From a virus: DNA of 42,778 bases. The position numbers and the translations under genes are program-made. The stretch lies in the IMG/VR virus record IMGVR_UViG_3300034073_001941, positions 1-42,778 of that record. One strand, 5' to 3'. How positions within the stretch are numbered: the stretch's first letter is position 1; each line of letters opens with the position of its first letter. Of the stretch, positions 28,546 through 42,694 are shown in pieces. The notes beneath the pieces were generated by a model. The model did no database searches and had not been told where the DNA came from. It saw nothing but the letters and a program-made list of their open reading frames with translations.

Positions 28546-28760
28546 GTGACCCCGTAACCCGCCCCGCACACTACGTCGACGGCCGCAAGTACGAGCCGCG
28601 CCTGGTTATTCAGGACTGGAATCTGTGCTGGGAGCTGGGCGACGCGGTGAAGTACATCGCTCGCGCCGGGCGAAAGGACGACGAGGCGCAGGATATTCGC
28701 AAGGCGATTACATACTTGCAGTTTCGGCTGGAACGGATTGAGCAGGAGCGCGGTAAGTGA
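28542..28760 (+). CDS. DUF3310 family protein
   Basis: A 72-residue protein matching the DUF3310 pattern: RPAHYVDG...VIQDWNL...WELGDAVKYIARAGRKDD...DIRKAITYLQFRLE. The family is common in phage replication regions and is often annotated as nucleotide-kinase-like without evidence of activity. It overlaps its neighbours by ATGA on one side and GTGA on the other. Confidence 0.85.
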   Translation: MSDPVTRPAHYVDGRKYEPRLVIQDWNLCWELGDAVKYIARAGRKDDEAQDIRKAITYLQFRLERIEQERGK

Positions 28761-29929
28761 GCGTGACATTGCTCCACGGCGACTGCCTCGAAATGATGCG
28801 CACGCTTGACGCGAACAGCGTGGACGCCGTAGTGACGGACCCGCCGTATGGCTTGAGCTTCATGGGCAAACGGTGGGACTACGACGTGCCCGCTGTGGAC
28901 GTGTGGGCAGAGGCGTTGCGCGTGTTGAAGCCCGGCGGGCATCTGTTGTCGTTTTTCGGTTCGCGGACGTATCACCGTGGCGTGTGCCGGATTGAGGACG
29001 CGGGGTTTGAGATACGGGATTGCATTATGTGGATTTATGGCTCGGGGTTCCCGAAATCGTTGGACGTGAGCAAGGCGATTGATAAGGCTGCGGGGGCGGA
29101 GCGGGAGACAGGCACGCCTGGACCATATTTTAATTTGCGAGGCGCTTCGGATGATAGCCCGTGTTTCGGCAAAGGCATTCGCTCAAAGTCGACGGCCCTA
29201 ATCACCGCCCCCGCCACTCCCGCCGCCCGCCAATGGCAAGGCTGGGGCACCGCCCTTAAACCAGCACACGAGCCTATCGTAGTCGCTCGCAAGCCGCTGG
29301 ACGGCACGGTTGCGGCGAACGTGCTGAAGTGGGGATGCGGCGGGTTGAATGTGGATGGGGGGCGGGTGGGGACGGATGCGGGTTGGTCATACCCGAATGG
29401 TCGAAATGGCAGCGGATGGCATGGACGAGAAAGCCTTGAGGCCAACCTGACAGAACCGATGAAGGCTACCGCAGGCCGGTTCCCCGCCAACGTAATCCAC
29501 GACGGCAGCGAGGACGTCACGCGGGGCATGGGCGATACAGCGAGGTATTTTTATTGCGCAAAAGCAAGCAAACGCGACCGGGACGAGGGGTGCGAAGGGA
29601 TAGCGTTAAAACGTACGGCTAAACACGGCGGCGCGGATAATGACAGAGAAGACCTTGACCCAGTTTCAGAACGGTTTAGGACTTCGCCATCCCGCAACCA
29701 CCATCCCACCGTCAAGCCCACCGACCTCATGCGCTACCTGTGCCGCCTCGTCACCCCGCCCAACGGCATCATCCTCGACCCGTTCATGGGCAGCGGCACA
29801 ACCGGCAAAGCCGCCGTGTTGGAAGGCTTCCAGTTTATCGGAATTGAGCGCGAGGCGGAATACCTTGAAATAGCCAAGGCGCGCATCGAGCACGCCGCAT
29901 CGCATCGGCAGACCGAGCTCGCGCTATGA
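28757..29929 (+). CDS. DNA methyltransferase (N6-adenine/N4-cytosine, DPPY type)
   Basis: A 390-residue SAM-dependent enzyme. The catalytic motif DPPY is near the N-terminus (residues 28-31) and the SAM-binding motif LDPFMGSGTTGKA near the C-terminus, i.e. beta-class order. A Gly/Trp-rich insertion at about residues 110-290 is the probable target recognition region. It starts with GTG. No restriction endonuclease is adjacent, so it is an orphan, probably protecting phage DNA from host restriction. Confidence 0.9.
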   Translation: MSVTLLHGDCLEMMRTLDANSVDAVVTDPPYGLSFMGKRWDYDVPAVDVWAEALRVLKPGGHLLSFFGSRTYHRGVCRIEDAGFEIRDCIMWIYGSGFPKSLDVSKAIDKAAGAERETGTPGPYFNLRGASDDSPCFGKGIRSKSTALITAPATPAARQWQGWGTALKPAHEPIVVARKPLDGTVAANVLKWGCGGLNVDGGRVGTDAGWSYPNGRNGSGWHGRESLEANLTEPMKATAGRFPANVIHDGSEDVTRGMGDTARYFYCAKASKRDRDEGCEGIALKRTAKHGGADNDREDLDPVSERFRTSPSRNHHPTVKPTDLMRYLCRLVTPPNGIILDPFMGSGTTGKAAVLEGFQFIGIEREAEYLEIAKARIEHAASHRQTELAL

Positions 29930-39155: not shown

Positions 39156-39613
39156 CCAACCTCATCGCCCACGGCGACCGCTTCAAACTCAACCTGTGGC
39201 TCTGGACAAACACGCCCATCCCAGCCAGGGCGTGGTTTGAAATCGCCTGCGCCAAGCACGAATACGGCGACTTCCACATGCCGACTAGCTACGCGAACAG
39301 CGTGATGGAAACACGGCATGCCGGGGCCGACGAGCATGGCCGAGCACGGGTACGGATTACCTTCATACGAGAATGGGCCGGTCAGCACGCAATACCGCTC
39401 AACGAGGCCACCTGCCGATGCAACGCCGTGGTGGAGCCGTGGGCATTCCCAGCGCCGGTGTATGTTATGCGGGCTAACGGGCGCATCTTTGCCTCAACAA
39501 ACTTCCCGCTTGCACTAACTGAGCAGGCCCGCATCATCCCATCCGGCCAGCCCGTCGCACGCTCCAGTAAGTACCCTGCGCTGGCGGTCATCTACCAGGT
39601 CGCTTCCACATGA
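39152..39613 (+). CDS. Hypothetical protein, 153 aa
   Basis: A 153-residue protein, strand-rich with many aromatic residues (FKLNLWLWTNTPIPARAWFEI) and a basic middle. It overlaps the primase-helicase gene by ATGA. It may belong to the replication set by position; no motif recognised. Confidence 0.6.
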   Translation: MTNLIAHGDRFKLNLWLWTNTPIPARAWFEIACAKHEYGDFHMPTSYANSVMETRHAGADEHGRARVRITFIREWAGQHAIPLNEATCRCNAVVEPWAFPAPVYVMRANGRIFASTNFPLALTEQARIIPSGQPVARSSKYPALAVIYQVAST

Positions 39614-42006
39614 CCTTAACTGACATCCTAGACCGGCTCGACAACATCAAGTCACAAGGCGACTATTACACCGCACGATGTCCAGCGCATGACGACCGAA
39701 AAAACTCGCTTTCGGTCAAAATGATGCCGTCTGGAAAAGTTTCAATCCAGTGTTACGCCGGTTGCGAAATCGGCGCGATATGCGAGGAAATCGACATCAA
39801 AAAATCCGATTTGTACCCCGACAAACCTGCCACGGGCCGAACTATATCAGACGTCTATCCGTACACAGACGCCGACGGCAACCTGCTATATGAAGTCGTG
39901 CGATATGTGCCGAAGGACTTTCGGCCGCGGGTGCCTGACCCCACGCAACGCGACGGCTACCGCTACAGCATGAAGAACACGCCACGGGTGCTGTTCAACC
40001 TGCCGGCGGTGCTGCACGCCATTGCGCATAACAAAATCGTTTTGTTCGTCGAGGGCGAAAAAGACGCCTTGACCGCACGGCAACACGGCATTACCGCGAC
40101 CTGCATCGCCGGCGGCGCGTCCGCCCCGTGGATAGACGATTACACCGCCGTACTGTCCCAGGCCAACAAGCTGGTTATCGTGCCGGACAACGACGAGCCG
40201 GGGCGGAATTTCGCGCACCGCATCCAGAAGCAGCTACCCCACGCCGTCATCGTGAACCTGCCCGGCCTCACTGAAAAACAAGACTTGACAGACTGGCTAC
40301 AGAAATCCACACCCTCCGATTTAATCGCCCTCATTCGCAACGCTTACCTCGAAAAAACCGCGCCACTGCCGCCTGCCCGCGACAATGAGCCGTTCCGCGC
40401 CCTTGGTTATAACTCAGGCCGGTACCATTTCTTCTCGCACCGCACGGGGCAAATACTGGACTTCTCAGCGGCTGCGTTCGGTCAGCGGACGACGTTCCTA
40501 CAGCTTGCCGACCTCAATTATTGGTTCTCGACGCCATACGCCGACGATTCGGGCAAAATCGACTACACGGCGCTGGCCGATTACCTCATGAACTCGCTAT
40601 GCCTGCCTGCCGGGCTTTTCGACGAGAACCGCATCCGCGGCCGCGGCGCATGGCTCGATGACGGCAAAACCATCCTCCACATGGGCGACCGGCTGATTAT
40701 CGACGGCAAGCCAGTGGCCATTGAGGCGCATGTGTCTGACTATATCTATCCCCGCTCGGCTGCCTTGAAGCTACAACCGAGCGAGCCGTTGTCTGACGAC
40801 CAGGCCAAGCGGCTTTTCGAGCTTTCTCGCGCCCTACGTTGGAATGAAGCCGCCTCGGCGTATTTCCTGGCCGGGTGGATAGCCCTTGCGCCGATATGCG
40901 GCGTGCTTCCGTGGCGTCCGCATATTTGGGTGTCGGGTCCGGCGGGTTCTGGTAAGACGACCGTGGTTAGCGATGTGATCGGCGCCATCCTGCAAGACCT
41001 TGCCATCAAGGTGCAGTCCGCATCGACGGAGGCCGGTATCCGGCAACTGATAGGCCAGGATGCGCTCCCGGTAACTTTCGACGAATGCGAACTCGACGAC
41101 AAGCAAGGCCAAGAGACGATCAAGAAAGTCCTCGCCTTGGCCCGGCAAGCGTCCAGCCTTGACGCCGCCAAAATCGTCAAGGGCGCGCCGCTGGGCAAGC
41201 CGCAGGAATATCAGACCCGGTCGATGTTTTGCTTCTCCAGTATTTCCGTCGGCGTGACCCGGTCGGCCGACGAGACCCGTGTTGTCCACTTGGAGCTTGC
41301 ACCGCCGGTGCGCTCTAGCGACCACTGGAAGGGCCTACAAGCCCTTATACGCGACATTTGCACGCCGGCCTATGGTGCGGCGCTTGCCGCCCGTTCCTGC
41401 GCCATGGCGCCAACTATACGCGCCAATAGCGAGACGTTCGCAGTCGCCTTGACCTCGCGCAAGGATCGCAGGTTCGGCGACCAGTACGGCGCCCTGCTGG
41501 CGGGCTGGTATTCCTTGATGTCCGATGCTGTCTTAACCATCGAGGAAGCGACCGAAATCGTCTATGAAATCCCGATGGAGTTTGACGCTGAAGCGGCCAA
41601 GCAAGAGACCGACGAAGCGAAATGCTTACAGTACATTTTAGACTATCGGTTGCGGTTCGAGCAGGGCGAGCGGTCTGTGTTTGAACTTGGCAAAATGAGC
41701 CGCGGACCGGCTGACTCGAACGAAGCAAAAGAAGCCGACGCCCTGCTCCGTCGCCACGGTTTGGCGTTTCGGGGCGAGATGCTCATGGTGGCGGTTTCCC
41801 ATTCCGGTGTTGCTGATATTTTGCAAGATACACCATGGGCGAACAAGTGGGGGATATTCCTTGCACGGATTCCGGGCGCCATAACTGGGCGATCTGTCTC
41901 TATGGTCAAGATGGGCGGCATCCCCAGGAGGTGCGTTGCGGTGCCGGTAACACAATTTGAGGACGTCGGTGTTACCGATTTCGAGTTTCCAAGTGCTTAC
42001 AATTAA
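39610..42006 (+). CDS. Primase-helicase (CHC2 zinc, TOPRIM and AAA+ domains)
   Basis: A 798-residue replication protein. Residues 20-55 carry a CHC2-type zinc site (C24, H27, C48, C52). Residues about 140-200 are a TOPRIM domain (FVEGEKDALTA with E148; VPDNDEPG with D193 and D195), expected to synthesise or regulate primers. The C-terminal half is an AAA+/DUF927-like helicase with Walker A GPAGSGKT (443-450) and a Walker B region PVTFDECELDD. The chain combines priming and unwinding, which suits origin-directed phage replication. Two GGTAACAC repeats (41946-41953 and 41969-41976) lie inside the end of this gene, next to the putative origin. Confidence 0.88.
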   Translation: MTLTDILDRLDNIKSQGDYYTARCPAHDDRKNSLSVKMMPSGKVSIQCYAGCEIGAICEEIDIKKSDLYPDKPATGRTISDVYPYTDADGNLLYEVVRYVPKDFRPRVPDPTQRDGYRYSMKNTPRVLFNLPAVLHAIAHNKIVLFVEGEKDALTARQHGITATCIAGGASAPWIDDYTAVLSQANKLVIVPDNDEPGRNFAHRIQKQLPHAVIVNLPGLTEKQDLTDWLQKSTPSDLIALIRNAYLEKTAPLPPARDNEPFRALGYNSGRYHFFSHRTGQILDFSAAAFGQRTTFLQLADLNYWFSTPYADDSGKIDYTALADYLMNSLCLPAGLFDENRIRGRGAWLDDGKTILHMGDRLIIDGKPVAIEAHVSDYIYPRSAALKLQPSEPLSDDQAKRLFELSRALRWNEAASAYFLAGWIALAPICGVLPWRPHIWVSGPAGSGKTTVVSDVIGAILQDLAIKVQSASTEAGIRQLIGQDALPVTFDECELDDKQGQETIKKVLALARQASSLDAAKIVKGAPLGKPQEYQTRSMFCFSSISVGVTRSADETRVVHLELAPPVRSSDHWKGLQALIRDICTPAYGAALAARSCAMAPTIRANSETFAVALTSRKDRRFGDQYGALLAGWYSLMSDAVLTIEEATEIVYEIPMEFDAEAAKQETDEAKCLQYILDYRLRFEQGERSVFELGKMSRGPADSNEAKEADALLRRHGLAFRGEMLMVAVSHSGVADILQDTPWANKWGIFLARIPGAITGRSVSMVKMGGIPRRCVAVPVTQFEDVGVTDFEFPSAYN

Positions 42007-42238
42007 AAGACTTAGCTGAGCGGTAACACGGTAACACCGTTTTCCCACAAGACGCACGTTATAGAAATTTGAAAAAACAATTTGATTGATAAAGTAATTT
42101 CTCCCCATGTAGGTATGTATATGGTGTTACCGTGTTACCTTATATTATATTTCTTTTCTAAAGATATATATATAAAGGGGTTAAGCCGGTAACACAAACG
42201 GTAACACCGCGGTAACACCGAGGCCATTTGGTGTTACC
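41946..42238. repeat. Putative replication origin with ten GGTAACAC iterons
   Basis: GGTAACAC occurs on the plus strand at 41946, 42022, 42030, 42188, 42200 and 42211, and on the minus strand (GTGTTACC) at 41969, 42124, 42132 and 42231. The tandem pair at 42022-42037 is exactly inverted at 42124-42139. Between and beyond lie AT-rich stretches, including 42140-42176 (TTATATTATATTTC and an ATATATATA run), suited to strand opening. Iterons plus an AT-rich element directly after a primase-helicase gene are the hallmarks of an origin. The initiator is unknown; the primase-helicase itself is the first candidate. Confidence 0.72.
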
Positions 42239-42322: not shown

Positions 42323-42694
42323 ATGCCGAGCCGACCTTCCAAGATATGCACAGCGCCAGGCTGTGGCGTCGCTGTCCAAAGTGACCCGGCGCTACACACA
42401 GACGCCCACGGCCGGCCCGCTACAGCTACCCGGTGCCCACGCCATGCTACCCCCACCCATACCAGACCGGGTGGGGACAAGCGGCCATCGGCATACGCTC
42501 GTGGCTACGATACCCGGTGGCAACGCATCCGCATGGGTGTGCTGTGCGAGCGGCCGTTCTGCGAGGACTGTGGAGGCTTCGCCAACGAGGTTCATCACAT
42601 AGTCAAGCTGAGAGACGGAGGCACGCACGACCCAAGCAACCTACTTGCACTCTGCAAGCCTTGTCACCAGAAGAGGACGGCGCGCGGGGAGTAG
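42323..42694 (+). CDS. HNH endonuclease (cos/packaging associated)
   Basis: A 123-residue protein. The N-terminal CTAPGC and CPRH region precedes a basic segment; the HNH core has C80/C83 (FCEDC), HHIV (H91, H92), the Asn in DPSNLLALC (N106) and KPCHQKR (C111, C114, H115). HNH proteins of this size encoded next to P27-type small terminase genes work with terminase in cutting cos DNA. GGAG precedes the ATG. The window ends 84 bases later, where the genome end is expected. Confidence 0.88.
   Translation: MPSRPSKICTAPGCGVAVQSDPALHTDAHGRPATATRCPRHATPTHTRPGGDKRPSAYARGYDTRWQRIRMGVLCERPFCEDCGGFANEVHHIVKLRDGGTHDPSNLLALCKPCHQKRTARGE

What the first reader, a model, noticed from the sequence alone, without database searches (positions are those of the whole stretch)
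41946..42238. Ten-copy iteron array with AT-rich core: candidate phage origin
GGTAACAC occurs ten times in 293 bases in both orientations, with a tandem pair (GGTAACACGGTAACAC) exactly mirrored 94 bases downstream and AT-rich sequence between and after. Two copies lie in the coding end of the primase-helicase. Iteron origins of this type are known for plasmids and some phages, but this repeat and its mirrored layout are not one I recognise. No RepA-like initiator is visible, so the TOPRIM-AAA+ protein may bind the iterons itself.
Basis: partly seen in the sequence, partly recalled or inferred. Interest (0 to 1): 0.7.

Follow-up and report, generated by a model that had tools for sequence, protein, structure and literature searches.

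The report
Phage replication origin read by helicase
Just after its DNA-copying enzyme gene, this phage carries a cluster of ten short repeats that is very probably the place where copying of its genome starts, and comparison with hundreds of related viruses points to the amino acid of the enzyme that reads the repeat.

Summary
In detail: GGTAACAC occurs exactly ten times in the window, all within 41946-42238 (0.68 expected in the whole window, no shuffle above 3). The array overlaps the end of a gene for a DnaG-type primase fused to an MCM-like helicase. About 250 related loci were examined. More than half carry an array of the same architecture at the primase stop codon: outer iterons, a tandem pair, an ~85-100 bp spacer with a TpA-rich element, the inverted pair, outer iterons. 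The iteron sequence changes between lineages. One protein column predicts it: residue 767, in the beta-wing of the C-terminal domain. R/K goes with G, and Y/W with C, at one motif position (best of 705 columns). The rule was written down before new loci were fetched and held in 19 of 19 testable ones; residue and base switched together in 5 of 5 supported independent contrasts. The predicted fold matches the self-loading initiator helicases Cch and SaPI Rep. So this is most likely the phage's replication origin, bound by its own primase-helicase: a SaPI/PICI-type origin in a large group of tailed phages. Binding and origin activity are not shown experimentally.

The parts
41946..42238 (.). Iteron array (ten GGTAACAC): proposed replication origin
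   Evidence: same architecture at the same place in relatives
41946..41976 (.). Outer-left iterons 41946+ and 41969-, inside the 3' end of the primase-helicase ORF
42022..42037 (+). Inner-left tandem iteron pair GGTAACACGGTAACAC
42038..42123 (.). Central spacer between the inverted pairs, about 66% AT; family spacer median 89 bp
42112..42123 (+). TpA-rich element GGTATGTATATG just left of the right inner pair; TAT[CG]TAT-type repeat in 27 of 48 non-redundant family spacers; possible melting site (inferred)
42124..42139 (-). Inner-right tandem iteron pair, inverted relative to 42022-42037
42140..42181 (.). Second AT-rich block, directly right of the inner-right pair; alternative melting site (inferred)
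42188..42238 (.). Outer-right iterons 42188+, 42200+, 42211+ and 42231-
39610..42006 (+). Primase-helicase (798 aa): DnaG-like zinc and TOPRIM primase, MCM-like AAA+ helicase, C-terminal DNA-binding domain; proposed initiator
41563..42003 (+). C-terminal domain (residues 652-798), resembling the SaPIBov1 Rep C-terminus and the winged-helix protein TcpK
41902..41910 (+). Codons 765-767 (Met765, Lys767) in the beta-wing; 767 predicts motif positions 1-2, 765 is the best column for position 4

Best explanation
The array is the phage's replication origin and its own primase-helicase is the initiator. The C-terminal winged-helix domain of the helicase binds the GGTAACAC iterons, with the beta-wing (residues 765-767) contacting bases. 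Binding to the two inverted sets places two helicase rings head to head around the AT-rich, TpA-rich spacer. The AAA+ motor melts the spacer and loads itself, and the fused DnaG-like primase primes both directions. Shown here: the array, its conserved position and architecture, the predicted fold, and the co-variation of residue 767 with the iteron. Inferred: binding, two hexamers, melting in the spacer, bidirectional start.
For: Array at the primase stop in relatives: score above 80 in 58 of 106 regions, 0 of 318 shuffles, 10 of 444 other real regions. Conserved inverted tandem pairs around a spacer of 73-110 bp. The Bdellovibrio phage phi1422 array lies just after its primase. Loci lacking it at the stop in a number of cases have the same architecture 0.7-5 kb away. 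Residue 767 is the best of 705 protein columns for motif position 2 (z 15.4, next 8.5) and the best for position 1; 765 is best for position 4. Rule written before fetching: 19 of 19 testable new loci right. Six changes of residue class and six of base; 5 of 5 supported independent pairs change together. AlphaFold model pLDDT 91; best Foldseek match SCCmec Cch 5dgk, E 1e-8, VIA Z 14.7 over residues 258-786; SaPI5 primase-helicase 7ola Z 14.2. C-terminal domain best matches SaPIBov1 Rep (Z 5.8) and TcpK (Z 5.5); TcpK reads tandem 9-nt repeats through its beta-wing (PMC6137059). SaPI Rep origins lie directly downstream of rep and are read by the C-terminal domain (PMC7581432).
Against: No binding, melting or replication data. 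Some relatives have no array found at the stop or in the flanks searched. GC skew has no switch at 42.1 kb. The C-terminal fold matches are modest (Z below 8). The rule was found by screening 705 columns at four positions, though it was then tested on new loci; the sign test with 5 pairs gives p 0.0625, the lowest possible. Lysine is less consistent at position 1 (three GG, one AT).
Confidence: 0.85

Rival explanations
1. The array is an operator: the primase-helicase or another phage protein binds it to control transcription of the primase operon or of the HNH-terminase genes downstream, and replication starts elsewhere.
For: It lies between the primase stop and the HNH gene at 42323. Origin-binding proteins often regulate their own genes (general knowledge).
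Against: Ten to fourteen iterons in mirrored sets around a fixed ~90 bp AT-rich spacer are more than an operator needs. The array keeps its architecture when displaced by kilobases from the primase stop.
Confidence: 0.07
2. The array is a packaging or partition site near the terminase genes.
For: In the window the next genes are HNH and, if the ends join, terS and terL. Direct GGTAACAC arrays lie near terminase genes in other viral contigs.
Against: In the family the array follows the primase gene. Its sequence co-varies with a residue of the primase-helicase.
Confidence: 0.05
3. Another, unlinked initiator binds the array and the primase-helicase is only recruited.
For: Iteron plasmids use separate Rep proteins (general knowledge). 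Only some 20 window proteins were scanned for families.
Against: Co-variation of the iteron with the wing residue, predictive out of sample. The fold matches initiator helicases that bind their own iterons.
Confidence: 0.03

Closest known systems
SaPI / PICI replication origins with Rep or Pri-Rep (Ubeda et al. 2007 as cited in PMC7581432; PMC6092414)
   Same: Origin directly 3' of the primase/initiator gene; two iteron sets flanking an AT-rich region; initiator with C-terminal DNA-binding domain; the C-terminal domain here best matches SaPIBov1 Rep
   Different: Carried by a tailed phage with its own head, tail and terminase genes, not a satellite. [quoted passage not shown] Iteron sequences differ by lineage.
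SCCmec Cch and Cch2 helicases
   Same: Cch is the closest solved fold over helicase plus C-terminus (5dgk, Z 14.7). Cch2 binds iterons just downstream of its gene with its C-terminal domain (PMC7581432).
   Different: Here a DnaG-type primase is fused to the helicase. DUF927 is not among the families listed for the 59 members (25 of 28 families shown) and hhalign shows no relation to two DUF927 proteins.
Phage P4 alpha protein with ori1/crr
   Same: Primase-helicase that recognises short iterons (P4 details from memory)
   Different: No D5_N or pox D5 domain match in the window protein at E 0.1.
TcpK of plasmid pCW3
   Same: Similar domain (Z 5.5); reads tandem 9-nt repeats through the beta-wing (PMC6137059)
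   Different: Conjugation accessory protein; no helicase.

Membership tests
SaPI/PICI-type replication origin | Lies immediately 3' of the primase/initiator gene | tested here: met
   Array 41946-42238 against ORF end 42006; 58 of 106 relatives
[quoted passage not shown]
SaPI/PICI-type replication origin | Initiator binds the iterons through its C-terminal domain | not testable with these tools
   Indirect support only: co-variation of residue 767 and the iteron
SaPI/PICI-type replication origin | Supports autonomous replication together with the initiator gene | not testable with these tools
   Needs a plasmid maintenance assay
PICI (the satellite element) | Satellite without a full set of virion genes | tested here: not met
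   TerS, TerL, portal, protease, major head, tape measure and tail proteins present
Cch / SaPI Rep self-loading helicases | Fold of helicase plus C-terminal domain | tested here: met
   5dgk Z 14.7, 417 residues aligned, rmsd 5.8; 7ola Z 14.2; predicted model, not a solved structure
Cch / DUF927 sequence family | DUF927 profile match | tested here: not met
   No DUF927 match for the window protein (E 0.1); not among the families listed for 59 members
P4 alpha family | D5_N / pox D5 helicase domain | tested here: not met
   No such match
Iteron plasmids with RepA/Rep_3 initiator | RepA-like winged-helix initiator gene | tested here: inconclusive
   None among the window proteins scanned; not all ORFs were scanned

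The most novel reading that the evidence does not exclude
A large class of tailed phages uses SaPI-like self-loading primase-helicases whose iteron specificity is set largely by one beta-wing residue (R: TG or CG; K: mostly GG; Y: mostly TC; W: CC), so origins and initiator specificities can be predicted from sequence. The same architecture and even the same octamer recur next to other primase-helicase families (DUF927/HTH_56 and phrog_35045).
Probability: 0.6. Interest if true: 0.75.

Novelty: new variant of a known kind. Interest (0 to 1): 0.64.

Why it matters
Origins of most environmental phages are unknown. This gives a recognisable origin class, a likely initiator, and a simple residue-base rule that can be tested at the bench and used to find and classify origins in metagenomes. 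It also extends an origin layout described as special to phage satellites to tailed phages, which bears on how satellites and phages share replication modules.

Tried and rejected
Megablast of the last 12.8 kb against phage records: no match. Literature search for the octamer gave only unrelated sequence hits among those listed; a search for iteron + phage + DNA primase + origin of replication + AT-rich gave nothing. Profile search with the helicase model in the 68 contigs with GGTAACACGGTAACAC found no member of this primase family, so the octamer alone does not mark the family. hhalign against two Cch-like proteins showed no relation (a template of two sequences has little power). Protein comparison failed and a third alignment was too diverse to scan with. 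Motif position 7 gave many equally good protein columns outside the C-terminal domain, which looks like shared ancestry and was not interpreted. GC skew was not informative. No terminal direct repeats were found at the window ends, so circularity is unproven. Chance or a selfish repeat was rejected and on the conserved layout in relatives.

Full report
Observation. GGTAACAC occurs ten times in the window and nowhere outside 41946-42238; 0.68 copies are expected in the whole window and no shuffle had more than 3. The tandem pairs at 42022-42037 and 42124-42139 form a perfect 17-nt inverted repeat with 84 nt between the arms. Two copies lie in the last codons of the primase-helicase ORF 39610-42006, the rest between it and an HNH gene at 42323. 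The window is a whole virus record with terminase, portal, protease, major head, tape measure, tail, integrase and Sak4-like genes: a tailed, probably temperate phage.

The initiator candidate. The 798-aa protein matches phrog_35358 'DNA primase' over 258-782 (E 4e-110) and Toprim_2. Its helicase module has no strong Pfam family. The AlphaFold model (59 sequences, mean pLDDT 91) has a DnaG-like primase at about 72-251; the remainder's best solved match is the SCCmec Cch helicase 5dgk (E 1e-8; VIA Z 14.7, 417 residues, rmsd 5.8, residues 258-786), with the SaPI5 primase-helicase 7ola at Z 14.2. The C-terminal domain alone matches the SaPIBov1 Rep C-terminus (Z 5.8) and TcpK (Z 5.5) best; these Z values are modest.

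Relatives. Relatives were fetched from phage records, viral contigs and genomes. A de novo repeat search, using no knowledge of the octamer, scored above 80 at the primase stop in 58 of 106 loci, in 0 of 318 shuffles and in 10 of 444 other real regions of the same loci. Sixty-one of the 68 best-scoring loci have a 70-120 bp gap between iterons; in 37 of them it is flanked by tandem pairs in opposite orientation on both sides. The layout is the same whether the iteron is GGTAACA, CGTAACA, CGTAAGA, CCTAACAG, GCTGACA or another word. phi1422, whose primase is 31% identical, has its GGTAACA array right after the stop. Of loci without an array at the stop, a number have one with the same architecture 0.7-5 kb away, among them Serratia phage MQ-4 with GGTAACA; in others none was found in the DNA held. 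The spacer holds a TAT[CG]TAT-type repeat about 20 nt from the right inner pair in 27 of 48 non-redundant cases.

Who reads the iterons. Motifs were oriented by the left inner pair and aligned on their T-N-A-C core before proteins were considered. Over 39 non-redundant loci, residue 767 was the best protein column for motif position 2 (z 8.9; next 5.7): R or K with G in 24 of 26, Y or W with C in 11 of 12, with no R/K-C or Y/W-G case. The prediction was written down, new loci were fetched, and 21 non-redundant new loci gave 19 right, 0 wrong and 2 without prediction (His). New loci are of the same family; those up to 90% identical in the C-terminal domain were allowed. With 63 loci the z-score is 15.4 (next 8.5), 767 is also the best column for position 1, and 765, two residues away, is the best for position 4. 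On a tree built without the wing region, residue class and base each change six times, and all five independent pairs on supported branches go together (p 0.0625, the lowest possible with five). The tree was a quick one and some long branches are unsure. The wing is the base-reading part of TcpK, which binds tandem 9-nt repeats (PMC6137059). This is strong circumstantial evidence of direct recognition, not proof.

Caveats on the window itself. Lys767 goes with GG in the window, L086, L281, L289 and L076, but not in L104 or L179. GGTAACACC is nearly palindromic, so the orientation of the window's iterons rests on the layout rule; position 2 is G either way.

Other families with the same arrangement. 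GGTAACACGGTAACAC is in 68 viral contigs, none with a detectable member of this primase family in the DNA held. Two of them, L020 and L028, carry the array right after DUF927/HTH_56 (Cch-like) genes with an 88-bp spacer. L015 and L038 have inverted tandem pairs around 72 and 79 bp, and L013, with a similar array, has a phrog_35045 primase next to it. So the architecture, and even the octamer, recurs with other helicases. Another 34 have a different pattern, four direct copies at about 13/8/13 spacing, which I would not call the same thing.

Known context. SaPI Rep origins lie directly downstream of rep and are read by the C-terminal domain; Cch2 binds and unwinds iterons downstream of its gene (PMC7581432). 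[quoted passage not shown] The window works like these, in a tailed phage. It is not a PICI and not a DUF927 protein by sequence, so it is filed as a new variant of a known kind.

Noticed in passing
L070 and 33 other loci among L006-L073: GGTAACAC in four direct copies at about 13/8/13 spacing in about 45 bp, several near terminase large subunit genes and without this primase in the DNA held; function unknown, possibly a different kind of site.
   Followed up: partly
L020, L028, L013, L015, L038, L026, L047: GGTAACA-type arrays, in most cases next to other primase-helicases (DUF927+HTH_56, phrog_35045, Prim-Pol+AAA_25, phrog_6088-like): the same octamer with unrelated or distant initiators.
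   Followed up: partly
L079 970-1400: In Acinetobacter phage Acjo_20 the array (GTGTAACA type) lies upstream of the primase gene instead of downstream.
   Followed up: partly
window 42112-42123 and family spacers: TAT[CG]TAT-type repeat about 20 nt left of the right inner pair in 27 of 48 non-redundant spacers, kept while the iterons change.
   Followed up: partly
L116, within the first 1060 bases: Another strong repeat cluster (seed ATCGCGCA, 14 copies) far from the primase.
   Followed up: no
L013 4941-7327: The phrog_35045 primase is split over two overlapping ORFs on the minus strand, by frameshift or as two genes.
   Followed up: no
window 28757-29929: N6/N4 DNA methyltransferase whose Pfam match spans residues 22-374 for a 221-position profile, so it seems to hold a large insertion.
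   Followed up: no
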